Shown here: positions 12,137-38,645 of the stretch, in pieces
How the letters are laid out: each line of letters opens with the position of its first letter
Position numbering within the stretch: position 1 is the first letter of the stretch
From: Candidatus Gastranaerophilales bacterium
GTDB taxonomy: Bacteria > Cyanobacteriota > Vampirovibrionia > Gastranaerophilales > Gastranaerophilaceae
Length of the DNA stretch: 63,836 nt
Assembly: GCA_944326465.1 (NCBI GenBank)
Contig: CALVEB010000011.1
Span: forward strand, 1 to 63,836
Direction: 5' to 3'
Notes under the pieces: generated by a model
Seen by the model: only the letters and a program-made list of their open reading frames with translations
What the model was told of the DNA's origin: nothing
Database searches by the model: none
Translations under genes and position numbers: made by a program

Positions 12137-12254
12137 CAACTGTTTAATAAATGTTCAAAAATTACATCTTTTCAATATACCAATTAGAATTTTTAAAATG
12201 ATTAAAGTTCCATTGTAATTGAAAGTAATGGCTTCGCCATTTTAACGCACTCGC

Positions 12255-12494
12255 TCAAAAAAGCCTAAACAAGTTTAGCTTTTTATTCGCTCCTTTGTTA
12301 TAGAAATTGTATTCCATAGAGTTATCATCTTTAAAGTTATAAGAATATTTATTCAATTGTGTTTTTCGATAACTTTCAAAAGCTATCCTGATTTCTTTTG
12401 CAAACTTATTTCTAAATTCAGAATATGATATCTCTAAGGTTTCTCTTGTTAGTTTATTTTTCAAAATCATCTTCAAACCCTCGTATGTTATCAA
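12255..12494 (-). CDS. Small unknown protein 3 of a three-gene cluster
   Basis: This 79-residue protein is basic and helical with an aromatic C-terminus (NLFRLF). I recognise no family. Its ORF overlaps the end of the upstream gene by 41 bases in another frame, so the true start may be the internal ATG of MILKNKLTRE. It is the last gene of a minus-strand cluster of three and ends inside a terminator-like hairpin. Confidence 0.55.
   Translation of the reverse strand: MITYEGLKMILKNKLTRETLEISYSEFRNKFAKEIRIAFESYRKTQLNKYSYNFKDDNSMEYNFYNKGANKKLNLFRLF
12257..12285 (-). terminator. Terminator of the small-gene cluster
   Basis: On the minus strand: AAAAAGCTAAAC, short loop, GTTTAGGCTTTTTT with one bulge and a T run. 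It overlaps the last codons of the 79-residue ORF. Confidence 0.6.
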
Positions 12495-12657
12495 GCTCTA
12501 TATTGTATCTTTTGCCTTGCTTATCAACACAAGTTGCATAATCTATCTCAGCATCTACAAATTTATTTTTCCAAATACAAATCAGCAATCCGATTTCTTG
12601 TGTTTTTAAATTCAAAACCTTTGTTCCATATAGTGCATAATCTTTCTCTGTCATCAT
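12454..12657 (-). CDS. Small unknown protein 2 (has a decayed paralogue at 32374)
   Basis: This 67-residue acidic/aromatic protein contains GTKVLNLKTQEIGLLICIW and NIELDNIRGFEDDFEK, which looks like a small beta-barrel fold. Its start overlaps the stop of the 71-residue gene (ATGA), so translation is coupled. A decayed plus-strand copy at 32374-32548 keeps GTK, LKT, EI, LLI and NIELGNIRGFENDFEK. I recognise no family. Two copies at opposite ends of the defence genes point to spread by a mobile element. Confidence 0.7.
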   Translation of the reverse strand: MMTEKDYALYGTKVLNLKTQEIGLLICIWKNKFVDAEIDYATCVDKQGKRYNIELDNIRGFEDDFEK

Positions 12658-12869
12658 TCTTTCCTTTCAAGTATCAAATCTGAATAGATATCATCAGGCT
12701 TTTGTGGGTCTATTAAAAACTCTTTCATAAACACAAATCTTTCTCCGCAAGTGTTTTCACAAATTACAGTGTCGAAATTGTAGAAGCCAATTACTTTGTA
12801 ATACTCATTATCAGAGATCTTAAAACCTTTAATCTTTTTGAGTCTGTATTTTTTGCCTAATTCAATCAT
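12654..12869 (-). CDS. Small unknown protein 1 of a three-gene cluster
   Basis: This 71-residue protein begins MIELGKKYRLKKIKGFKI and ends DIYSDLILERKE. Alternating hydrophobic residues and GKKYRLKK suggest a small SH3- or KOW-like beta barrel, but this is a guess from pattern only. It is the first gene of the cluster and starts 70 bases from the inverted end-like motif at 12939-12955. Its function is unknown. Confidence 0.65.
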   Translation of the reverse strand: MIELGKKYRLKKIKGFKISDNEYYKVIGFYNFDTVICENTCGERFVFMKEFLIDPQKPDDIYSDLILERKE

Positions 12870-12938
12870 TGTTACCTCTTATCAGCAATAACATTAATCG
12901 CTCTATGCTAATTAAATATCAAGCAAAGTGTTTAAAAA

Positions 12939-12955
12939 TGTATCATTCAGACACA
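12939..12955 (-). repeat. End-like inverted repeat, left copy
   Basis: The plus strand reads TGTATCATTCAGACACA. The minus strand reads TGTGTCTGAATGATACA and matches 24675-24691 (TGTGTCTGAATGATGCA) at 16 of 17 positions. Similarity continues to the left of the motif (AAACACTT about 20 bases on in both) and stops at the ACACA side. This suggests that the element carrying this end extends to the left. Confidence 0.7.
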
Positions 12956-13002
12956 ATTCATTTTTTTAAAACACTATTTGAACAGAATTTGATCACGGTT
13001 TT

Positions 13003-14895
13003 TTAAGGTTCACCAAATAATATAGAAAATATTTTATTTTTCATGAAAATATCATTATACTTGCTGTTTATATTTATTAGATTTAAAACTTTTTCTTTTA
13101 TAATATTTCTAATATTTTTATCTTTTTTGACCAAAGATTTGAGTTCTTTCATTTTCTGTGGCGTAAGGAAATGTATATAAGAAACCTCAAAGTTATTATA
13201 ATCAAAATTTTTCATACTACTAACAAAAGATAGATATGCTACTCCTTTAAAGCACGTGTATCGCAATAAATTTAAATACCGACTACTGTTTTTAATTATT
13301 CCAAAATTTATCAAATCTGCAATAATGCTTATTGCATTTTCTGCCTCTCGTTTTTCCTTTGTAGGTGATATTTTCCAAATTTTCCCATCATATTCTTTTG
13401 TTCTAGGATTTCCTTTTAAATTGAAATAATTTTTTATTCTATATTCGGTTTGTTGCAATAAAAGTTCTTCATATTGAATGTTTGACGAAATAATACCCTT
13501 CATACTTGCTTCGTAAAAAAGTTCAATATTAAAATTTGCATTTAAAAACACAATAATTGATTTTTTAATTTTTCTTTTTAATTTTTTATTTGCAATTGAA
13601 TACATTGGAATATAAAAATCTTGCAAATAAGAAATATCTTCTACCATATTTATATTTTCAATGTCAATAATATAGTCTTTGTCAAAAAATTGAATTATAT
13701 TAGACAAATTGTATATAACTCGACATAATGAATTCCTCACAATATAATTATATTCATCTACACATTTTATAGTTTTTTTATAGATATACAGCAATAATAG
13801 TTTTAAACTTTCGACATGGATATTTTGTCGTCTACTTAAATCATTGTATTGAATAATTATAAAATCCATTAAATATCTATATAAATCAATATCATTTGAG
13901 CATATTTTATAATGTTTTAAAAATTTTAAATAAAAGGTTATTATTTCTGAAAATTCAGATTTATCAAGGTCTATTTTTGAAAAAATTATGAAAAACTTTC
14001 TGAGATATTTTATAAATTTACGATTGTTATGATATTTGAATTTATTAATTGAACTAATTAAATTTTTATATGATAATAAAAGTTTTTGTTTATCAGATAA
14101 TAAAATTATATCTATTGTACTAATTACATCGCTGAGTTGTTTTATATTTAAGTATTCAATCATTAAATACATATCAAAATAATAAAACTCACGTTCTTTT
14201 ATTTCTTCTATAAAAGAGTGATATTTAGTAATGCAATCTTGATCGTTATTTTCTTTTATATTTTGATTATCTATAAAATTTGCTTTTATAGCATAATAAA
14301 ATATTTCACGAAATGAGTTATCATTTTCTATAAACAAATAATTTAAAATATAATCCTCATATAAAAGTATATGATATTGATTAATACCTGATGCGTTGAT
14401 TGTCTTACTATTAACCTCGTCAGTTAACTTTAATATTTTATTCTTGTAATATATGAAATTATCGCCATTTAATTTCTTTTTGATTATATTTTGTTCATCA
14501 TTTGTTAAATAATTTTCTAGTAAATAATTAATGTTTATTTGTTTAACAGAATTAGCAATCCGATGAATCTCATGTTTTCCATAATTTTGTTCAATTGTTT
14601 CCCAAAGATGATTTATTAAGATTAAACCCATTTGCAGCCTATTGTATTCTGAAATAACAAATAGCAGGTTGTTTTTATTTCTAAATTTATTTGAAATAAT
14701 TTCTAATTCTATATATGACTCGTATATTTTATCTAACTTAAAAAAAATATAAGCTTTTTTAAATATATTTACATCTTGGCAATTGGCATTTAGTTTATTT
14801 AATAATTTTTGCAAGGAAACAAAATCAAACATACTAGCTTGATTTATTACATCATCTTTTATTACATTCTCCAGTAAACTATATGTTCCCAACAT
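13003..14895 (-). CDS. Large helical protein paired with SIR2 gene
   Basis: This protein of about 630 residues is almost entirely predicted helix, extremely rich in I, N, K and Y, with no recognisable catalytic motif. I chose the ATG at 14895 because it follows GGAG and overlaps the SIR2 stop by 17 bases; an upstream ATG at 14931 would overlap it by 53. Together with the SIR2 gene the pair encodes about 1020 residues in the order SIR2 then helical domain, which is the size and order of single-chain DSR-type defence proteins, where the helical part senses phage proteins. A partner or sensor role is inferred. It is the last gene of the helicase-methyltransferase-SIR2 operon. Confidence 0.8.
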   Translation of the reverse strand: MLGTYSLLENVIKDDVINQASMFDFVSLQKLLNKLNANCQDVNIFKKAYIFFKLDKIYESYIELEIISNKFRNKNNLLFVISEYNRLQMGLILINHLWETIEQNYGKHEIHRIANSVKQININYLLENYLTNDEQNIIKKKLNGDNFIYYKNKILKLTDEVNSKTINASGINQYHILLYEDYILNYLFIENDNSFREIFYYAIKANFIDNQNIKENNDQDCITKYHSFIEEIKEREFYYFDMYLMIEYLNIKQLSDVISTIDIILLSDKQKLLLSYKNLISSINKFKYHNNRKFIKYLRKFFIIFSKIDLDKSEFSEIITFYLKFLKHYKICSNDIDLYRYLMDFIIIQYNDLSRRQNIHVESLKLLLLYIYKKTIKCVDEYNYIVRNSLCRVIYNLSNIIQFFDKDYIIDIENINMVEDISYLQDFYIPMYSIANKKLKRKIKKSIIVFLNANFNIELFYEASMKGIISSNIQYEELLLQQTEYRIKNYFNLKGNPRTKEYDGKIWKISPTKEKREAENAISIIADLINFGIIKNSSRYLNLLRYTCFKGVAYLSFVSSMKNFDYNNFEVSYIHFLTPQKMKELKSLVKKDKNIRNIIKEKVLNLININSKYNDIFMKNKIFSILFGEP

Positions 14896-16060
14896 TAATC
14901 TCCAAACTGTTATTTCCTTTACGATATTCAATTACATTCACATTATTTTCTATTAGAAATTCCTTTAATATTTTAAATTTATGATTATTGGTAAACTCAT
15001 GAAATTCTTTTATAAAATTATTTAATTTGCTACTATACAATATAACTTTCTTTTCATATTCATTATATCTAGCTAAACAATCCTCAAACAAAAATTCATA
15101 TAATTCATTTGGATTAATAAAATTAAAATTTCTGACAATTTTAATTTTATTATCTATTGTATGTATTGGATCTAAAATATAATGTTTTAAAAAATATAAT
15201 GTTTTATATAATTCCTGTCCTTTTTTAGGTAACTTTTTAATATTTTCTTCTGTTATTTCATCTAAAATTGTTTGAGAATAAAATTTATCAATAATGTCTA
15301 TAATTTCATAAAAATTAATTGTAAATATATCCTTAAGTTCTAAATATTTTTTTAATATTTTTTGTTTTTTATCTTTTTTTATTTCGTCACACAATATTAA
15401 ATATGAAGGCTGTTTGTTTTCTTTTAAAATATCCTTAACCCATTGATAAATTTGATTTACATTTGGATCATCTGCCGAAAATCCAACAAACAAAACAACA
15501 CTTGTTGCAAAGATAGATTTTATAAAAGTCTCAACTAATTTGAAGTTCAAAGAATATTCATTATAATCATTTTCTTTAAATACAATATTCTTATTTTCAA
15601 AATCACCATGCATTTTTATAATAGCTTTATCTTTTATATAGGGAATATGCTTGTTCTTGCATATTATTTTATAACTATTATTTTTTAATTCATTTGCTGT
15701 ATCTTCTAAAATACAATCATAGTTCGTAGTAATGAAATATTTAGGACTAAATTCATCAAATAATAATTTTGTAATAATATTTGTTTCCCATTTTTTATTT
15801 AATGCATCATTTAAAATTCTCTTATACTTCCTAGGGTGTGCATCAAAATAACATTGAGCTATTTTAATGTAATCTGCTGGTGAAACATTAGCTATATTTA
15901 AGTCATCTGTAAATTTTTTTATTATTTCACTCCATGTTGGCACTCCGGAATTTTTAGAAACCCCTGCTCCAACAAAAATAGCAAGATTATAATTATTATT
16001 AATTGCTTCTTGTATTCTTTTAATATGAATTTCTAGGTCATTATTATTTTCTTGTGTCAT
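14879..16060 (-). CDS. SIR2-domain protein (probable NAD-consuming defence effector)
   Basis: The N-terminal half of this 393-residue protein is a SIR2_2-type domain: the nucleotide-binding loop GAGVS at residues 31-35, then PTW, TTNYD at 111-115, and KMHGD with the likely catalytic His at 151, then VLFVGFSADDPNV. In defence systems such domains cleave NAD+ to block phage growth. The C-terminal part is helical with no clear domain. It follows the methyltransferase gene by 8 bases and overlaps the next gene, so it is in the same operon. It has no signal peptide and is expected to be cytoplasmic. The DNA is about as AT-rich as the rest of the island. Confidence 0.88.
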   Translation of the reverse strand: MTQENNNDLEIHIKRIQEAINNNYNLAIFVGAGVSKNSGVPTWSEIIKKFTDDLNIANVSPADYIKIAQCYFDAHPRKYKRILNDALNKKWETNIITKLLFDEFSPKYFITTNYDCILEDTANELKNNSYKIICKNKHIPYIKDKAIIKMHGDFENKNIVFKENDYNEYSLNFKLVETFIKSIFATSVVLFVGFSADDPNVNQIYQWVKDILKENKQPSYLILCDEIKKDKKQKILKKYLELKDIFTINFYEIIDIIDKFYSQTILDEITEENIKKLPKKGQELYKTLYFLKHYILDPIHTIDNKIKIVRNFNFINPNELYEFLFEDCLARYNEYEKKVILYSSKLNNFIKEFHEFTNNHKFKILKEFLIENNVNVIEYRKGNNSLEINVGNI

Positions 16061-28337: not shown

Positions 28338-29639
28338 ATGCAAAGATACGCACTAAAACATCTGATTAATTGGAAAAACAAAAAAAATCATAAACCTTTG
28401 GTTATACAAGGCGCAAGGCAAGTTGGTAAAACTTGGTTAATGCAGGAATTTGGGAAAAAGTATTATGAGCAAGTTGCATATATTAACTTTGATGTAGATG
28501 TAAAAAGCAGAGAGATTTTTGATGTCGACTATGATACTGAGCGTTTAATTATGGATATAGGTCTTGCAACAAAGACAAAAATTAATGCGGAAAATACTTT
28601 GATAATCTTTGATGAAATTCAAGAATGTCCAAGAGCCTTAACTTCACTTAAGTATTTTAGAGAAAATGCTCCTCAATACGATATTATAGTTGCAGGAAGC
28701 TTGTTAGGTGTTGCTTGTCATGAAGGGACGGGTTTCCCTGTTGGTAAGGTTTCATTTATGAATCTTTTCCCATTAAGTTTTGAAGAATTTTTATTAGCAA
28801 TGGGAGAAGGAAGGTTTGTTGAACTTTTAAATAAAAAAGATTTTAAAACAATAAAACTATTTAATAACAAGTATGAAAAGCTCTTAAAACAATATTGTTA
28901 TGTTGGAGGAATGCCTGAAATTGTACAAGATTTTGTTGAAAACAAAGATTTTGAAAGTGTTAGAAATCTGCAAAAAGAAATTCTCTCTGCTTATGAAGAA
29001 GATTTTACAAAACATATTACCACTAATACAGTTGCTAAAATAAGGTTATTATGGAAATCTATTCCGGCACAGTTAAGTAAAGAAAATAAGAAATTTATAT
29101 ATGGAGCAGCAAAGGAAGGAGCTCGTGCAAGAGATTTTGAAGCTGCTTTGTCTTGGTTAATTAATAGTGGCTTAGTATACAGAGTAAATAAAATTACAAA
29201 ACCTGATTTACCAATTACTGCTTACGAAGATTTCAACTCATTTAAGTTATTTGTACTGGATGTTGGCCTATTAGGTGCAATGACAGATTTACAAGCAGAT
29301 ACGATTATTGATGGTAATCGTATATTTGAAGAATTTAAAGGTGCCATAGCCGAACAATATGTTTTACAACAATTTAAGACAATTAAAGATTTACCAGTCT
29401 TTTATTGGTCTAATGAAACCAGCAGGGCTGAAATTGACTTTGTTATCCAAATAAAATCTGATGTTGTTCCTGTTGAAGTAAAGGCGGAAAGAAACTTACA
29501 AGCTAAAAGTTTGAAGGTTTATATGGAAAAATTTAAACCCAATTATGCAATAAGAACGTCAATGGCAGATTATAAGAAAACCAATAGTCTTATAGATATT
29601 CCAATATATGCAATAGAAATATTTAAAGAGGAATTATGA
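28338..29639 (+). CDS. AAA ATPase with DUF4143 domain
   Basis: The product is 433 residues from the ATG at 28338, preceded by GAGGG; an ATG at 28323 is less well placed. Walker A is GARQVGKTWLM (about 25-35), Walker B is TLIIFDEIQECP (about 90-101), followed by IIVAGSLLG and the FPLSFEEFL segment typical of the AAA_14/DUF4143 family. The C-terminal part has the nuclease-like core of DUF4143 (EIDFVIQ ... PVEVKAE, a D-ExK pattern). Function in this family is unclear. Its stop overlaps the next start (ATGA), so it is translationally coupled to the Gabija-like genes. Confidence 0.9.
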   Translation: MQRYALKHLINWKNKKNHKPLVIQGARQVGKTWLMQEFGKKYYEQVAYINFDVDVKSREIFDVDYDTERLIMDIGLATKTKINAENTLIIFDEIQECPRALTSLKYFRENAPQYDIIVAGSLLGVACHEGTGFPVGKVSFMNLFPLSFEEFLLAMGEGRFVELLNKKDFKTIKLFNNKYEKLLKQYCYVGGMPEIVQDFVENKDFESVRNLQKEILSAYEEDFTKHITTNTVAKIRLLWKSIPAQLSKENKKFIYGAAKEGARARDFEAALSWLINSGLVYRVNKITKPDLPITAYEDFNSFKLFVLDVGLLGAMTDLQADTIIDGNRIFEEFKGAIAEQYVLQQFKTIKDLPVFYWSNETSRAEIDFVIQIKSDVVPVEVKAERNLQAKSLKVYMEKFKPNYAIRTSMADYKKTNSLIDIPIYAIEIFKEEL

Positions 29640-31243
29640 TAAAAAAAATTATAATAAAAAATTACAAACAATTTGAGAATTTTAGTCTTGAACTGAACCC
29701 TGATATTAACATAATAGTTGGGAATAATGAGGCTGGTAAAACAACTCTTTTTGAGGCTATAAATCTTGGGCTTACACAAAAGCTCAATGGTAGAATGATT
29801 GCACAAGAACTTACGCCATATCTTTTTAATTTAAATGCAAGAGATTTATACTTGAAGGATTTGCAAAAGAATGCAAAAACCGCAAAACTGCCTGAAATAC
29901 TTATTGAGATATACTTTACTGACGATATTAGAGGAGATTTTAAGGGAAGCATAAATTCATTAAAAGAAGATTGTGCGGGTGTCTCTTTAAGAATATGTTT
30001 TGACAGTGATTTTCAAAAAGAGTACGAAAAATATATAATTGAACCGGAAAAAGTAAAAGAAATTCCCATAGAATACTATAAAGTTGAATGGTATAGTTTT
30101 GCAAGTAATACATTTAGATTTTTAGAATTACCTGTAAGATCTCATCTAATTGGAAATGTTGAGCATCGTTATATACAAGGACCAGATAAATACATAGCTG
30201 AACTAGTTGGAGATTATTTAGATGATACTCAAAAATCATTACTTGCTTTAAAATATCGACAATTAAAAGAAGAATTCACAAGCGATGAAAAAATTAAAAA
30301 TATTAATGATGATTTTAAAAGTACAGGAACACCAATATCAGATAAAAATGTCCAAATTTCAATTGACATATCTGCGAAGAATTCTTGGGATTCTATATTA
30401 TCATTATATTTTGATAATATCCCTTTTAAATTTATCGGCAAAGGGGAACAAAATTCTGTAAAAATAAAATTGGCATTAAAAGAAAAGCTTGAACAATCAG
30501 ATATAATTATGATTGAAGAACCTGAAACAAGTTTGTCTTTTTCAAATTTAAATAAATTAGTAAGTGTTATTTCTAAAGCATGTGCTGGTAAACAATTGCT
30601 TATCAGCACTCACAGTTCTTTTATCGCAAATAAAACCGGTATTGATAAATTAATTCTATTAAACAAGAATAAAAGTTTTAAAATTGGTGATTTATCCCCA
30701 GACACATATAAATATTTTAAAAAATTGTCTGGTTATGATACTTTGCGAATGATCCTTGCAACTAAAAGTATTTTGGTAGAAGGGCCATCCGATGAATTAA
30801 TTGTCCAAAAAGCATATTATGATGCATACGATAAGTTGCCAATAGAAGAAGGTACAGATGTAATAGCTGTTTCATCTTTAGCATTTAAGAGATTTCTTGA
30901 AATCGCAAAAGCGTTAAAACTTAATACGGTTGTTGTCACAGACAACGATGGTGATGTAGAAAAACTAAAAGAAAAATATTGTGATTATTTAAATGAAGAA
31001 AACATAAAAATATGTTTTTCAACAGATACAAGTCTTAATACTTTAGAGCCAAACATGTATGCAGCAAATGGATATAATAAATTAAAGTCTCTGTTTACAA
31101 GACCAACTAACGATACAGAAGAACAATTTAAAAAATTTTTTATATCGAAAAACAACAAAACAGAAGTTGCATTAACTATTTTTGATGCAGAAAAAGGAGC
31201 TGTCGATTTTCCACAGTATATAAAAGATGCCATTAAAAAATAA
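29636..31243 (+). CDS. gajA: GajA-like OLD-family ATPase/TOPRIM nuclease
   Basis: This 535-residue protein has an N-terminal ABC-type ATPase with Walker A GNNEAGKTT (29-37) and Walker B IIMIEEPETSLSF (about 285-297), then LISTHSSF. The C-terminal TOPRIM domain has the acidic residue in ILVEGPSDE (about 380) and VVVTDNDGD (about 431-439). With a UvrD-like helicase downstream this is the Gabija pair: GajA nicks DNA when phage depletes nucleotides. It is slightly shorter than the founding GajA (about 580). The symbol is given by domain order and context, not by alignment. Confidence 0.85.
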   Translation: MIKKIIIKNYKQFENFSLELNPDINIIVGNNEAGKTTLFEAINLGLTQKLNGRMIAQELTPYLFNLNARDLYLKDLQKNAKTAKLPEILIEIYFTDDIRGDFKGSINSLKEDCAGVSLRICFDSDFQKEYEKYIIEPEKVKEIPIEYYKVEWYSFASNTFRFLELPVRSHLIGNVEHRYIQGPDKYIAELVGDYLDDTQKSLLALKYRQLKEEFTSDEKIKNINDDFKSTGTPISDKNVQISIDISAKNSWDSILSLYFDNIPFKFIGKGEQNSVKIKLALKEKLEQSDIIMIEEPETSLSFSNLNKLVSVISKACAGKQLLISTHSSFIANKTGIDKLILLNKNKSFKIGDLSPDTYKYFKKLSGYDTLRMILATKSILVEGPSDELIVQKAYYDAYDKLPIEEGTDVIAVSSLAFKRFLEIAKALKLNTVVVTDNDGDVEKLKEKYCDYLNEENIKICFSTDTSLNTLEPNMYAANGYNKLKSLFTRPTNDTEEQFKKFFISKNNKTEVALTIFDAEKGAVDFPQYIKDAIKK

Positions 31244-32360
31244 TATTTTAATACACTCAACAGCAGGTTCTGGTAAAACAACTTGTCTGGTAAAAGTTGC
31301 ATTAAACAATGCGAATAAAAAGATTTTAATAACAACTTATACAAGAAATAATATTCAGGAAATTAAAAATAAATTTGTTGAATTAAATGGCTATGTTCCC
31401 AATAATGTAGAAATTATAACTTGGGAAACATTTTTGCTTAAAAATTGCATAAGACCATATCAAAATCTTATGGGGTTTGAAGATAGAATTTATCAAGTTC
31501 ATTTTACAAATAAGGACCCGCATTTGAAGGTAAGTAGTAATGGTAAATATTATTACACAATAAAGAAAAGTAATGATATTCAGCGATATTATTTAACTTC
31601 AAATGGTAGAATTTATTCTTGCAAAATATCTGAATTTGCTGATGATTGCCATAAAATGGTAAAAGGTAAAATGCTTCAGCGAATTGAAGAATGCTACGAC
31701 TATATTTTCGTAGATGAGGCTCAAGATTTTGCCGGATATGATTTTGAAATTATGAATTTAATATTAAAATCTAAAAATATAAAATCAATTATTGTGGCGG
31801 ATAAAAGGCAAAATACTTTTGATACGCATTATTCAAAGAAAAATAAAAAATATGCTGAAAACATTATAGAATGGTTTAAGTTTTTAGAAAATAAAAAACT
31901 CGCAAAATTAAACTATTTGAATAATACTTGGCGTTGCAATCAACATATTTGTGATATTGCAGATTCTTTATATCCAGAGTTGCCAAAATCCATATCTAAA
32001 AATAAAATTACAACAGAACATGATGGATTATTTTACGTAAAAAATGACAATTTAAAAAAATACTTAAATCGATATAAGCCAGTTGTTTTGGCATATTGCC
32101 AAAATTCATGCAATGATTTAGAACCTAATATAAAGACAATGAATTTTGGAATATCAAAAGGATTAACTTTTGATAGGGTTTTAATAAAGCCAACAGAAAA
32201 AATTATGGATTTTCTTAAATATGGTAGCATTCCGGAGAAAGCAAAAGAAAAGCTCTACATTGCTATAACAAGAGCACGATATAGTGTAAGTTTTATTGTT
32301 CCTAATGATGTAGATTTAGATTCTTTTTATAATAAAAAGATTATCGAATGGAGTGAATAA
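31227..32360 (+). CDS. gajB: GajB-like UvrD-family helicase
   Basis: This 377-residue protein has Walker A STAGSGKTT (11-19), an ITTYTRNNIQEIK motif Ia, a DEAQD box in YIFVDEAQDFAGYD (about 162), ADKRQNTF, a WRCN segment and the final helicase motif LYIAITRARYSVSFIV. It overlaps the end of gajA by 17 bases, so the two are coupled. At 377 residues it is shorter than typical GajB (about 490), mainly because the second helicase domain is compact. Alternatives are other OLD-plus-UvrD systems, but Gabija fits best. Confidence 0.8.
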   Translation: MPLKNNILIHSTAGSGKTTCLVKVALNNANKKILITTYTRNNIQEIKNKFVELNGYVPNNVEIITWETFLLKNCIRPYQNLMGFEDRIYQVHFTNKDPHLKVSSNGKYYYTIKKSNDIQRYYLTSNGRIYSCKISEFADDCHKMVKGKMLQRIEECYDYIFVDEAQDFAGYDFEIMNLILKSKNIKSIIVADKRQNTFDTHYSKKNKKYAENIIEWFKFLENKKLAKLNYLNNTWRCNQHICDIADSLYPELPKSISKNKITTEHDGLFYVKNDNLKKYLNRYKPVVLAYCQNSCNDLEPNIKTMNFGISKGLTFDRVLIKPTEKIMDFLKYGSIPEKAKEKLYIAITRARYSVSFIVPNDVDLDSFYNKKIIEWSE

Positions 32361-32373
32361 TTATTCTTAAACT

Positions 32374-32548
32374 GGGACTAAGATTTTAATTTTAAAAACT
32401 CTAGAAATATATCTACTGATTTATTTATGGGAGAACAAGTTTGCTGATAAAACAGTAGATTTGCAACATAATTTGATAAAGTAGGCAAACAATACAATAT
32501 TGAACTTGGTAATATTAGAGGATTTGAAAATGATTTTGAAAAAATAAT
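32374..32548 (+). pseudogene. Decayed copy of the small protein encoded at 12454-12657
   Basis: Translation gives GTKILILKTLEIYLLIYLW and then ENKFADKTVD; after a one-base shift and a stop codon it continues FDKVGKQYNIELGNIRGF and ENDFEK. The intact protein reads GTKVLNLKTQEIGLLICIW and later NIELDNIRGFEDDFEK. The N-terminus is missing. The copy lies between the two convergent genes gajB and the Hsp90-like gene. Similarity along the whole length in the right order makes this more than chance. Confidence 0.8.
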
Positions 32549-32557
32549 TAAACTAAA

Positions 32558-35500
32558 TTATTTTAAAATCATAAAATATGTATCATCTTTTTTTAAGCAT
32601 TTAGTGTCAATATCTTTTATGATTGTATAATGTGAATTATCAATAAATAAAAATATAAAATATGTTTGTAGATATTCATTTTGTTTTTTACAAGTTTCAT
32701 ATTCATTTGCAGTTAAAAAGAAGCCGTTGCCGGACAATGTTTTAATTTCATAATAAAAAACATTATTTTTATCATCATAACATTTTAAATCATATCCTAA
32801 GCTATCGTTATTAACTTGTTCAACTTTAACATATTTTTTCTCTAATTCTTCTTTAGCCATTTTCTCATGCATATTTCCTATTTGTTTTTTTAATTTATCA
32901 CTTGAAAATGAATGATGAGATGCTTTTTGTTTATTTTTTTTAGGATCAAATTTGTATTTTGGAATATAATCCTTAATTTCTGTAAGAGGTTTTAATTCTT
33001 CGTCGGGGCTTATTTCTTTGTCCATGTTTTTTTTATTTACTATATTTGAACAAAATTGATCAATTTCAGAAGTATCTTCAAAAAATAAAATACTAGCCAA
33101 ATTATCATTGCCATTTATATTATCTATATAGTCTTTATATTTTTCACGGTTACGATTATATATATATTCTATTTCTTCTTTAGTTTTTGATTTATCTGAT
33201 TTCTTTTTTATGCCTAAATTTAAAGATGATACATATTTCCATATTTGTTCTTCATAATTTTGTTCATATTGATTTACAGGAATATATTTTTCAAATTGGT
33301 TAATGATTTTACTCCAGTTACATTGTGTTTTATAATTGTCAAAATTCTTTTTATCATTTTGACAATTAGTCCATAATATAGGAATAAACTCATTTTCATA
33401 TAAATTTTCATAAATATTTTTATATTTTTGGATATTATAATTTTTGAAATTTACAGTATCTAAATTATCAAAAAATTGTTTTTTATCATTAATTTCATAA
33501 TCATCAAGAAGTTCATCCATTATATCATTATAGTTTTCATAATCAAAATCCCATTTATTTTTTAAAGATTTTTTATAATACCATTCTTCAAAAGAAATTG
33601 TTTGTTTGGTTACTTTATGTAAGCGCCGCCAAAAATTTTCTTTTGGGCACGATAATCCTTCTTTATTCTTTGCAAGCATTAGAATTTTTAACGGATAGTT
33701 CTCTTCAAACATTTTTTCTGAATATTGTATATCGAAATCTTTAAAAATAGCTGCATATCTATCACCGTCATTAAGCCCAAAAGTTATTGATATTATTTCA
33801 GATATAAATTCTCCTATTTTAATCCTATATTCATTATTTGTATACAAATCATTTAAGTTTACAATATCATCTGGCATTTTAATATAATATTTGTTTTTAT
33901 TATTCTGTTCGTTAATAAATTCAAAATCATCCACTATTTGAGGAACTAAGTCTTTTTGATAAGAAATTTTTTCGCACAATTCTATTTTTACATCGCAAAT
34001 TTTTTTATATTGTTCATTTATTGCTTCCTCGACATTCTTATCACTCCCTAATGCACGATATGCTACAAAAATAGGACGCAATTGTTTGAAATAAGCCATA
34101 AATTCTTTTGTTAAAGATTTTATTTCTTTTTTTTCAACAACTTTAATCTCAATTTCGTCAAATGTTTTGACACCAAAAATATTTTTTATTTGTTTAGAAC
34201 CTCTTCTTCTTGGGATGTCAATAAGCGGATAGCTTTGTATTATATTTTTAGGTAAGGACCTATTATCATAATAATATAATTTGTCACTATCAATATAATT
34301 TTGTTTATTTTTGGAAAACAGTTTACATCTTGGCAAGTGATAATTATCTCCATTTGCCTTATTAGTTTCTATAAGTTGTTCATATAATAATTGTGCATAA
34401 TGTCCATCTGTATCATATACAGGTAATTTATTTTTTATAATCTCACCTAATTCATAACTAGATAGATCTTCAATTGTTTCTGCTGCACCTAATTCTTTTA
34501 ATATGTTATTTATAGTATATTCTTCAATATCAAAAATTTTAAATAGCAGCTTTTTGTCTAATTTAAAATCAATATTAATAAAAGGTAGATTTTTACAATT
34601 AATAACAAAGTTGTTTAAATGGTAATGCGGACAAATGATTTCTTTTAAATTTAAATTATCCTCATATAAAAGTCCTATATTTTTAGAAAAATACAATATT
34701 GTTTGTTCTAATGAAAAATTGTTAATAATATTTTCTAGATTATTTTTAAAAAGTTCAGGTTCTATAGTTTCTTTAACTCCTAGCCATTTAAAGAATTCTT
34801 CAATATTTGATGCTTCACAACATCCAGCCCATTCTTCTTTGTTTAGAATAAAGCTTTGATTAGTATTTTTAACATAATCTTTGCACAAAAATTCAGTCAT
34901 ATAACCATTCAAATATGACGAATTAAAGAAAATTCCACTATCTGTGGAAATTATTCTATTGTCATCTGATATTAGTGGCACACTTACTCTTATTGCAGCA
35001 GTATTAGGACTCCATATTTTTGAAATAACTTTTATCATTTCTTTTATATTAGACAAAGCATATTCTTTATTTTTTTTAATAACAGTTCTGGTATCCGAAA
35101 TAATTTGCTCAATTATTGGTACGGGTTCATATGTATATATTTGAGCAATATCCTTTAGAATTCTTTGTAATTGTCTATAATAATCATCATCATTACATTC
35201 ATATTTTGTTAACAATGAATTCAGTAGTTTTGATGATAAAAAAGTAATATTAACAAAAGACGGAACAACTAATTCTTCTTTAAGTGTTTTATGGGTAAAT
35301 ATTCTTTGATTATATTTGATTACAGTATTATTATTATCTATAAATAATGAATATTCATTATAATTTTCTAGATTTTCTGGTAATAATGAGATTAATTTAT
35401 CTTTTAATAAATAAATTAAACTTGTTCTAATTTCTATCTCATTTTTATGACCTAAAATATTATTGCTAAGCTTAGAAATATCTTCTAATAAAATTTCATT

Positions 35501-36730
35501 TTCGCTACTTAAATTATATGAATTTGCTTTAGCTACTCTGTTAAAACTTGAAGGTAATTCTATGTGATATTCAGTTTGCAGTTTATCTAGATATTCAGTA
35601 AGTTCCTTTTCTAAAAATATAGCCTTATCTATTGTTCGATACTCATTATCTAAACATGGTATAATCTTTAAAGATTTTTGAAGTATTTTAATTTTAGAGT
35701 AAAAATAAAAATCTTTTTCAATTTCAATAGCTTCTTGCTTATAGTTTAATAATTCATATGGAATCCAATTACATTCGTTTTGCGTATAATCTATAACTAT
35801 TTCTTTTAAATACGTGATAATTTGATCGAATATATATTTATTTTTATCTGTAGCTGGAATGTAATTTCTTGCTGAATCTAATTCAAATGTTGCGTGAATT
35901 AAAACTGGTAAATAAAGCCTAACCTTTGTTGGAAGATATGAATATAGTGGTTCTTTCGTAAAGTCATCCATTTCAGAATAAATAGCTTTAATTTCATATT
36001 TTTTATAAATATCTTCTTCTGTAATAAATGATGCAGTATCAGGAAATTGTTCTTTTTTTGATTTAAAAATATAACATTTATCATTATCCTTTTTTATTAC
36101 ATTTTCATTAATATATAGTTCTTCAATGTTATTTAGAAACTCCAATAAATATTTAGTATCATTTAATTCTAAAAGTTGCTTTTTTATATCATTTAAACTT
36201 GAACGATTAAATTTAATAATAACCTGTGTTACCCACGGCTTTTCGCAAGAGCATTCATTGATTACTTTGGGAAAAACTAGTGTTGCTGCTTTTATGCTTG
36301 GATCTATATCTATTTTTTCATGAAGTATTTTATTTGAAATTTCCTTACTGAAGACCAAAGCAAAACCATTTGATTTTATTGTAATTTCATCAGCCCATGA
36401 TAAAATAGAACGAAATCCTAAACCTTTATTTCCAATAAATTCTTCAGATTTTTTTGCACTGTTGTGATGCAAAAATATTGAGCTATATCCCTTTAAACTA
36501 AATGGCTTGCCATCATTTGATATTGTTAATGTTTGTTCTTTGATATCTAAATCTATATATACTTTTTTAGCTTGAGCATCATCAGAATTTTGTATTAGTT
36601 CAAATAACTCTCTTCCTTTATAATCCTTTACTGCATTTTTTTCAGAATTATAATCCGAAATTATTCTGTCTTTTGAATATTTATATACATTTATTGTTTC
36701 TTCAATTTTTGCATATATTTCGTCTAACAA
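32558..36730 (-). CDS. Giant Hsp90-type ATPase with DUF3883 nuclease-like C-terminus
   Basis: This 1390-residue protein has a TTG start with AAAGGAG 7 bases upstream. The N-terminus is a sacsin/Hsp90-like (GHKL, Bergerat) ATPase: GRELFELIQNSDDAQA (about 38-53), SNDGKPF, and IGNKGLGFRS (about 98-107). The C-terminal 120 residues match DUF3883: GNMHEKMAKEELEKKY, then a D...ExK pattern in SLGYDLKCYDD and FYYEIKTLSG, as in PD-(D/E)xK nucleases. The middle 1000 residues are helical with no known motif. Such fusions occur in defence islands; here it stands alone and convergent to gajB, so it may be a single-gene system. Confidence 0.85.
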   Translation of the reverse strand: MLDEIYAKIEETINVYKYSKDRIISDYNSEKNAVKDYKGRELFELIQNSDDAQAKKVYIDLDIKEQTLTISNDGKPFSLKGYSSIFLHHNSAKKSEEFIGNKGLGFRSILSWADEITIKSNGFALVFSKEISNKILHEKIDIDPSIKAATLVFPKVINECSCEKPWVTQVIIKFNRSSLNDIKKQLLELNDTKYLLEFLNNIEELYINENVIKKDNDKCYIFKSKKEQFPDTASFITEEDIYKKYEIKAIYSEMDDFTKEPLYSYLPTKVRLYLPVLIHATFELDSARNYIPATDKNKYIFDQIITYLKEIVIDYTQNECNWIPYELLNYKQEAIEIEKDFYFYSKIKILQKSLKIIPCLDNEYRTIDKAIFLEKELTEYLDKLQTEYHIELPSSFNRVAKANSYNLSSENEILLEDISKLSNNILGHKNEIEIRTSLIYLLKDKLISLLPENLENYNEYSLFIDNNNTVIKYNQRIFTHKTLKEELVVPSFVNITFLSSKLLNSLLTKYECNDDDYYRQLQRILKDIAQIYTYEPVPIIEQIISDTRTVIKKNKEYALSNIKEMIKVISKIWSPNTAAIRVSVPLISDDNRIISTDSGIFFNSSYLNGYMTEFLCKDYVKNTNQSFILNKEEWAGCCEASNIEEFFKWLGVKETIEPELFKNNLENIINNFSLEQTILYFSKNIGLLYEDNLNLKEIICPHYHLNNFVINCKNLPFINIDFKLDKKLLFKIFDIEEYTINNILKELGAAETIEDLSSYELGEIIKNKLPVYDTDGHYAQLLYEQLIETNKANGDNYHLPRCKLFSKNKQNYIDSDKLYYYDNRSLPKNIIQSYPLIDIPRRRGSKQIKNIFGVKTFDEIEIKVVEKKEIKSLTKEFMAYFKQLRPIFVAYRALGSDKNVEEAINEQYKKICDVKIELCEKISYQKDLVPQIVDDFEFINEQNNKNKYYIKMPDDIVNLNDLYTNNEYRIKIGEFISEIISITFGLNDGDRYAAIFKDFDIQYSEKMFEENYPLKILMLAKNKEGLSCPKENFWRRLHKVTKQTISFEEWYYKKSLKNKWDFDYENYNDIMDELLDDYEINDKKQFFDNLDTVNFKNYNIQKYKNIYENLYENEFIPILWTNCQNDKKNFDNYKTQCNWSKIINQFEKYIPVNQYEQNYEEQIWKYVSSLNLGIKKKSDKSKTKEEIEYIYNRNREKYKDYIDNINGNDNLASILFFEDTSEIDQFCSNIVNKKNMDKEISPDEELKPLTEIKDYIPKYKFDPKKNKQKASHHSFSSDKLKKQIGNMHEKMAKEELEKKYVKVEQVNNDSLGYDLKCYDDKNNVFYYEIKTLSGNGFFLTANEYETCKKQNEYLQTYFIFLFIDNSHYTIIKDIDTKCLKKDDTYFMILK

Positions 36731-36843
36731 GGTTCTGCTCCTTTATTATTAAACTATCACAAACATGGATGTGATGGGCAGTACCCATAAAAGTGGATAA
36801 TGAGAGATTAAATAGCTTAATAGAAAAAGCAAGAGGTACAGAA

Positions 36844-37295
36844 ATGACAAAAAGATTAAAACAATTTACATAAGAAGACATAGAAATTCTATTAGCAAAT
36901 CCAAATATGTAGAGGATGTAACAGTTAATACTATTAAATATACTTCTAAATTTAAGAAACTGGCACTTAAAGAAGCAAATGAAGGTATAATTCCAAATAA
37001 AATCTTTCAAAAAGCCGGATTTGATTTAAAAATTATAGGTAAGCATACTCCAAATAATCGCATAAGAGCTTGAAAATTTGAAGAAAGATATTCTAATAAA
37101 AAAATATGAAATATTTAGATAAAGAAATAAGAAAGAATAAAATTCTAAAAAAGTTACAAGCTCTGTATAATCTTCAGAGTAAAACAACAACTTAAGCATC
37201 AAATGATCTCTACAATAAAAGATTATCCAATATCTATGTTATGCAAAATAGCAAAGGTTTCAAAAAGCGGATAAAATAAAAGATGAAGCTGATAT
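36844..37295 (+). pseudogene. IS3-family transposase remnant
   Basis: Pieces of an IS3/IS150-type OrfA can be read across several frames. It begins MTKRLKQFT-(stop)-EDIEILLANPN, then VTVNTIKYTSKFKKLALKEA and NEGIIPNKIFQKAGFDLKII, and later an OrfB-like start with IKDYPISMLCKIAKVSKSG. Stops and frameshifts are present throughout and the catalytic half is missing. It sits upstream of the Hsp90-like gene on the opposite strand. It shows older insertion-sequence activity in the island. Confidence 0.72.
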
Positions 37296-38179: not shown

Positions 38180-38198
38180 ATTTACCCTAGATGCGATT
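38180..38198 (-). repeat. Duplicate of the tRNA-Arg 3' end (att-like)
   Basis: ATTTACCCTAGATGCGATT repeats 38569-38587 (ATTTACCCTGGATGCGATT), which is the 3' end of tRNA-Arg plus three flanking bases, with one mismatch. Integrases that use tRNA 3' ends leave such duplicates. The 390 bp between them is too short to be a whole element, so a deleted or minimal element is implied. Confidence 0.6.
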
Positions 38199-38529: not shown

Positions 38530-38571
38530 AAATAATAATAGGACAAGAATAAATCCTGTCCTATTATTATT

Positions 38572-38572
<1 letters not shown>
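38530..38572 (-). terminator. Terminator of tRNA-Arg
   Basis: A 16-bp perfect stem AAATAATAATAGGACA / TGTCCTATTATTATTT with an 11-base loop immediately follows the tRNA 3' end on the minus strand. Confidence 0.75.

Positions 38573-38645
<73 letters not shown>

What the first reader, a model, noticed from the sequence alone, without database searches (positions are those of the whole stretch)
32558..36730. Giant Hsp90-like ATPase fused to a DUF3883 nuclease-like domain, possible single-gene defence system
A 1390-residue protein has an intact Bergerat fold (N in QNSDD, NDGKPF, GNKGLGFRS) and a terminal D...ExK pattern, and sits alone in a defence island. The 1000-residue middle is unassigned. 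I know no characterised single-gene system with exactly this layout.
Basis: partly seen in the sequence, partly recalled or inferred. Interest (0 to 1): 0.58.

Follow-up and report, generated by a model that had tools for sequence, protein, structure and literature searches.

The report
A known phage-defence protein, Tiamat (TmtA)
This very large gut-bacterium protein, an Hsp90/sacsin-like ATPase joined to a DNA-cutting domain, belongs to an already described single-gene anti-phage family called Tiamat, so it is a new example of a known system whose working is still unexplained.

Summary
In detail: an intact 1390-aa ORF on the MINUS strand at 32558-36730, with an N-terminal Bergerat/GHKL ATPase and a C-terminal NOV_C (DUF3883) domain carrying D1314...E1328-x-K1330. 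The claim of an unfamiliar layout does not hold. Tiamat is a described defence system of unknown mechanism. Added here: the ATPase models as the sacsin SR1/Hsp90 fold and the C-terminus as an Hjc-like PD-(D/E)xK nuclease. In 23 homologues the only invariant C-half residues are that D, E and K. Relatives lie beside BREX or restriction genes, or other known defence genes, in 5 of 12 loci partly scanned. The gene lies end-to-end with Gabija in an AT-rich island. The closest worked-out analogue is the GHKL-Shedu nuclease VcSduA, where both the ATPase Glu and the nuclease Lys are needed (passages). Likely mode, inferred: an ATP-gated clamp that licenses DNA cleavage.

The parts
32558..36730 (-). 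tmtA (Tiamat) gene, 1390 aa, TTG start at 36730
   Evidence: ORF; PADLOC TmtA PDLC03964 E=7.5e-189, profile 10-695 and 814-1519 of 1538
36065..36730 (-). residues 1 to about 222: Hsp90/sacsin-SR1-type GHKL ATPase domain (E44, N48, D51, G74, G100, K102, G103, G105)
   Evidence: Pfam HATPase_c_3 above cut-off; NCBIfam sacsin N-terminal domain; model fits sacsin SR1 5v44 Z 14.8, 3.3 A, 175 aligned, tied with Hsp90 chains
35777..36064 (-). residues about 223-318: stretch after the ATPase domain, comparable in position to the Hsp90/sacsin middle domain, with invariant R288
   Evidence: alignments to Hsp90 chains reach model residue 318 (but rmsd 8-9 A over 240-247 residues, so domain orientation differs); R288 invariant in 25 of 25. 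Equivalence to Hsp90 R380/sacsin R474 is inferred, not aligned here
32921..35776 (-). residues about 319-1270: long mixed helical/strand scaffold, no assigned fold
   Evidence: AlphaFold models m9b880d6061f9 and mf7292d133aad; no separate fold search of this part was run
32561..32890 (-). residues about 1281-1390: NOV_C/DUF3883 PD-(D/E)xK nuclease domain, triad D1314/E1328/K1330
   Evidence: Pfam NOV_C above cut-off; matches archaeal Hjc resolvase 2wcw Z 11.1, 3.2 A, 104 aligned; the only 3 invariant columns of the C-half alignment of 23
36738..36743 (-). AAGGAG Shine-Dalgarno-like sequence before the TTG start
   Evidence: read directly
29636..31243 (+). neighbour, not part of Tiamat: GajA of a Gabija system
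   Evidence: PADLOC PDLC00102 E=4.1e-198
31227..32360 (+). neighbour, not part of Tiamat: GajB of Gabija, convergent to tmtA
   Evidence: PADLOC PDLC00148 E=9.4e-117

Best explanation
It is a member of the TmtA family, the one-gene Tiamat anti-phage system, carried in a defence island of a Gastranaerophilales (gut relative of cyanobacteria) genome. Proposed working: (1) the N-terminal sacsin/Hsp90-type module binds ATP through E44/N48/GxxGxG and closes, with R288 completing the active site; (2) the long middle part forms a clamp or scaffold that senses an invader-linked DNA or protein state; (3) closure positions the C-terminal Hjc-like PD-(D/E)xK domain (D1314, E1328, K1330) to cut DNA. Shown here: family membership, intact and conserved catalytic residues, predicted folds of the two ends, defence genes as neighbours. 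Inferred: ATP gating, DNA as target, the role of the middle. Unknown: trigger, phage versus self DNA, oligomeric state. I put membership at about 0.95 and the mechanism at about 0.5.
For: Membership: TmtA PDLC03964 E=7.5e-189, profile positions 10-695 plus 814-1519 of 1538; 25 of 25 aligned homologues match that model at E<=1e-20. Folds: ATPase half to sacsin SR1 and Hsp90, C-terminus to Hjc, also SPARDA nuclease subunits and restriction enzymes. Conservation at 17-29% identity: E44, N48, D51, G100, G103, G105, R288, D1314, E1328, K1330 in 25 of 25. In 19 further long (1300 aa or more) relatives left out of that alignment, E44/N48/D51/R288 are kept in 19 of 19 and D/E/K in 14 of 19. Context: other defence genes beside the homologue in 5 of 12 loci whose neighbours were partly scanned; in L035 the homologue lies between the specificity and restriction genes of a type I system. 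Patchy presence: 3 of 383 genomes of its own family. Analogy: in VcSduA, a GHKL ATPase plus PD-(D/E)xK protein, E27A and K557A each abolish defence (PMC12137116, passages).
Against: No activity is shown for this protein. In 5 of the 19 left-out long relatives the D/E/K triad is altered or not found (L080, L083, L076, L108, L095), so the nuclease site is not universal in the wider family. The adenine-contacting Asp of Hsp90 appears as Asn72 here (my reading of the motif, from recall). Foldseek E-values for the C-half are weak (best 7.2e-3). 7 of 12 homologue loci showed no strong PADLOC neighbour, apart from a lone WYL hit in one, and no control loci were scanned. The N-terminal motif conservation is partly built in, because loci were found with a pattern from that motif.
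Confidence: 0.7

Rival explanations
1. It is Tiamat, but the C-terminal domain is an RNase or a nucleic-acid binder and the system works by stopping the cell (abortive infection) rather than by cutting phage DNA.
For: PD-(D/E)xK-like folds include RNA-acting enzymes; tRNA splicing endonuclease chains are among the listed fold matches. Papers list Tiamat's mechanism as unknown (passages).
Against: The better-scoring fold matches are DNA enzymes (Hjc, I-Ssp6803I, NhoI/Eco15I, SPARDA). The intact D/E/K triad in 25 of 25 speaks against simple binding.
Confidence: 0.3
2. A housekeeping or stress chaperone of sacsin type rather than a defence protein.
For: The ATPase fold is that of sacsin and Hsp90 chaperones.
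Against: Found in 3 of 383 genomes of its own family; AT-rich island (GC 0.21-0.30 against 0.31-0.47 outside); Gabija next door; restriction and BREX neighbours elsewhere; a conserved nuclease triad at the end.
Confidence: 0.04
3. It is an accessory part of the adjacent Gabija, or of the type IIG/SNF2-PLD restriction locus of the same island, not an independent system.
For: Gabija ends about 200 bp away. In L034 TmtA-like genes lie in one row with an SNF2 helicase and a type IIG enzyme; in L035 with type I RM genes and a GajA.
Against: Opposite orientation to Gabija with no shared operon. In L014 the four neighbours scanned are BREX genes or unassigned, not Gabija (L013's neighbours were not scanned).
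Confidence: 0.1

Closest known systems
Tiamat (TmtA), PADLOC PDLC03964; first described by Millman et al. 2022 (recalled; the paper is not held)
   Same: Single large protein; the profile matches along almost its whole length, E=7.5e-189; HATPase and NOV_C ends.
   Different: A distinct sequence, about 28-31% identical to its nearest relatives found here; a gap of about 118 profile positions (696-813) between the two matched pieces.
[quoted passage not shown]
   Same: GHKL ATPase at the N-terminus, middle region, PD-(D/E)xK nuclease at the C-terminus, one gene.
   Different: Nuclease domain is DUF4263 (Shedu), not NOV_C/DUF3883; much shorter (nuclease Lys at 557 against 1330 here).
Human sacsin SR1 domain (PDB 5v44) and Hsp90
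   Same: ATPase fold (Z 14.8 and about 14).
   Different: No nuclease; sacsin carries three such modules plus J and HEPN domains (PMC3710099 and PMC9880540, passages).
Archaeal Holliday junction resolvase Hjc (PDB 2wcw)
   Same: PD-(D/E)xK core of the C-terminal domain (Z 11.1).
   Different: Free-standing enzyme for a DNA junction; no claim here that this protein resolves junctions.

Membership tests
Tiamat (TmtA) | Near full-length match to the TmtA profile | tested here: met
   Profile 10-695 and 814-1519 of 1538, E=7.5e-189
Tiamat (TmtA) | Single-gene unit | tested here: met
   Downstream gene convergent; upstream only a 102-aa ORF before tRNA-Arg, none of 103 aa or more
Tiamat (TmtA) | GHKL/sacsin-type ATPase domain with intact motifs | tested here: met
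Tiamat (TmtA) | C-terminal NOV_C (DUF3883) domain, present in 23 of 25 aligned TmtA-matching members | tested here: met
Tiamat (TmtA) | Protects against phage | not testable with these tools
   No bench data for this protein
Shedu, GHKL type (VcSduA-like) | DUF4263 nuclease domain | tested here: not met
   C-terminal domain is NOV_C; no DUF4263 listed by Pfam at E<=0.1 and no Shedu model by PADLOC at E<=0.01
Gabija accessory part | Shared operon with gajA/gajB | tested here: not met
   Opposite strand, convergent
Sacsin | SR1-type ATPase fold | tested here: met
Sacsin | Three ATPase modules, J domain and HEPN domain | tested here: not met
   One HATPase and NOV_C only

The most novel reading that the evidence does not exclude
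The Tiamat family is a prokaryotic sacsin-type ATP-driven clamp joined to an Hjc-like DNA nuclease: a second, separately assembled solution (beside GHKL-Shedu) in which a GHKL ATPase cycle gates a PD-(D/E)xK nuclease. The shared core is ATPase plus the R288 region plus nuclease, and the long middle is a variable sensor, as compact relatives of about 670-720 aa keep the ends without the middle.
Probability: 0.5. Interest if true: 0.4.

Novelty: new member of a known kind. Interest (0 to 1): 0.17.

Why it matters
Tiamat's mechanism is listed as unknown or poorly understood in the papers seen (passages). The residue-level picture here (ATPase E44/N48, R288, nuclease D1314/E1328/K1330, all invariant in 25 distant homologues) gives a short list of mutants that would settle whether it is an ATP-gated nuclease. 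As a discovery of a new system the finding does not stand.

Tried and rejected
Considered and rejected: a new single-gene system (rejected by the TmtA match); a plasmid- or phage-borne gene (14 plasmid records match only parts of the protein, none covering 80%; no phage record; no E. coli DNA match; one viral-contig scan gave no relative); an internal repeat in the middle region (profile comparison of blocks 530-665 and 740-870 gave E 0.027 and probability 1.8%, not significant). Sequence searches of solved structures with P0001, A2 and A4 gave nothing useful. A first genome-contig scan with the single protein found no relative; the second, with a three-row alignment, found 199, of which 80 were kept. 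Promoter-like sites in 32200-37200 are near shuffle level (54 against mean 42.9, sd 5.7).

Selection told: of the ORFs that hit the A1 profile, 22 entered A2, plus P0001, L023 and L028. Left out were copies of one locus (L014, L030, L032), fragments and more distant rows; one search then checked 39 ORFs, of which two (L023, L028) were already in A2. Of the 167 neighbour ORFs listed, 38 were scanned, plus four neighbours in L014. No control loci were scanned, so enrichment is not claimed. Papers: Tiamat searches returned 12 and 5 papers, Tiamat+Mokosh+mechanism 5, TmtA+defense 47 of which the 10 listed are unrelated by title, DUF3883+phage 3, 'Hsp90-like ATPase' 1, 'GHKL ATPase' 3, sacsin+prokaryot 45 of which 20 listed; only the passages cited were read, no whole paper.

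Full report
Observation. The stated interval holds one intact ORF of 1390 codons on the minus strand, starting at TTG 36730 behind AAGGAG. It is far longer than chance (longest frame 142 aa in 200 shuffles).

Identity. PADLOC-DB assigns it to TmtA, the protein of Tiamat, at E=7.5e-189. A genome-level run shows two pieces that cover profile positions 10-695 and 814-1519 of 1538. The 25 members of the homologue alignment A2 all match the same model; NOV_C is found in 23 of 25 and the Pfam sacsin domain in 16 of 25. Tiamat is listed as a described system with unknown mechanism in PMC12926258 (passage) and PMC10482375 (passages), and is frequent in Pseudomonas island hotspots in PMC12629846 (passages). 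The original description (Millman et al. 2022) is recalled; the paper is not held.

Anatomy. An AlphaFold model of residues 1-700 has mean pLDDT 84. Its first 222 residues match the human sacsin SR1 domain (5v44, Z 14.8, 3.3 A, 175 aligned), tied with Hsp90 chains at Z about 14. Matches to closed Hsp90 chains run on to residue 318, but at rmsd 8-9 A, so only the order of domains is supported. Residue R288 lies there and is invariant in 25 of 25. In sacsin and Hsp90 a downstream arginine is proposed to complete the ATPase site (PMC9880540, passages); equating R288 with it is my inference. The model of residues 600-1390 has mean pLDDT 76. Its last about 110 residues match archaeal Hjc (2wcw, Z 11.1, 3.2 A, 104 aligned), SPARDA nuclease subunits (Z 10.0 and below) and restriction enzymes; Foldseek's own best E-value is 7.2e-3. 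In the 23-row alignment of that half only three of 791 positions are invariant, and they are D1314, E1328 and K1330. That is the strongest sign of a working nuclease site: the loci were found through an N-terminal pattern, which cannot have selected for it. The N-terminal motif itself is biased by that pattern.

Wider family. Among 19 long relatives left out of A2, the ATPase residues and R288 are kept in 19 of 19 and the nuclease triad in 14 of 19. Nine compact relatives of 663-759 aa also turned up; six of them (L104, L081, L098, L061, L057, L105) keep D/E/K, two show S/A/K and one has gaps there. They join the two ends without the long middle, which suggests that the middle is a variable, possibly sensing, part. 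That is inference.

Context. The gene lies in an AT-rich stretch (about 12-38 kb, GC 0.21-0.30 per 2 kb, against 0.31-0.47 outside) between tRNA-Ala (11695) and tRNA-Arg (38572). The same stretch holds Gabija, a PDC-S01 candidate, a type IIG enzyme with an SNF2-PLD helicase, and a SIR2 protein. Two of its near relatives, matched by name, are Candidatus Gastranaerophilales. In its own family 3 of 383 genomes carry the TmtA model at E<=1e-20. The two other carriers, from different genera, share a 4695-bp stretch of tRNA-Ala plus tmtA at 98.9% DNA identity, which points to recent transfer; both lie beside tRNA-Ala, the site that bounds the window's island. Across genera, homologues lie beside BREX genes (L014), a type I restriction enzyme (L029), inside a type I row between the specificity and restriction genes (L035), in a row with an SNF2 helicase, a type IIG enzyme and a second TmtA (L034), and beside a HEC-06/Orf5 protein (L041): 5 of 12 loci partly scanned. 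No control loci were scanned.

Mechanism. The nearest worked-out analogue is VcSduA, where an N-terminal GHKL ATPase and a C-terminal PD-(D/E)xK nuclease are both needed for defence (E27A and K557A inactive; PMC12137116, passages). By analogy I propose an ATP-gated clamp nuclease. ATP use, DNA cleavage and the trigger are not shown for this protein.

Verdict. A sound observation of a real defence protein; a new member of a known kind, not a new system. Interest low, with a modest gain in residue-level hypotheses for a family whose mechanism is open.

Noticed in passing
window 11695-38645; L013, L014, L109, L111: tRNA-Ala(TGC) beside a mini-RNase III-like gene (name recalled) looks like a defence-island hotspot in this family: it bounds this island (Gabija, Tiamat, type IIG RM), BREX+Tiamat in L014, Tiamat in L013, type I RM genes with a recombinase-like gene in L109, and SNF2-PLD helicase + type IIG + methylase in L111. 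L110, L112, L114 and L116 show no such island by ORF content.
   Followed up: partly
L013:7295-11976 and L014:7514-12205: tRNA-Ala plus tmtA 98.9% identical over 4695 bp between genomes of two genera, suggesting recent horizontal transfer.
   Followed up: partly
L061, L104, L098, L057, L081, L105: Compact proteins of 671-723 aa with the GHKL ATPase, the R288-like arginine and a NOV_C-like D/E/K end but without the long middle region; possibly a separate, shorter system.
   Followed up: partly
L034:9971-20818: Two TmtA-like genes in tandem (1526 and 2084 aa) behind an SNF2 helicase and a type IIG enzyme.
   Followed up: no
window 38180-38198 and 38569-38587: The 3' end of tRNA-Arg is repeated (18 of 19 bases) about 390 bp further towards the island, like an attachment-site remnant.
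   Followed up: no
window 12162-12989: Stretch 88.7% identical over 691 bp to L032:7403-8089 beside its BREX genes, with no ORF of 100 aa listed in the window; a shared island segment.
   Followed up: no
window 13003-16060: A SIR2 protein (ThsA-like hits, E 1e-36) followed by a 642-aa protein with no PADLOC hit and no Pfam hit above cut-off; their ORFs overlap, a possible two-gene NADase-type defence unit.
   Followed up: no
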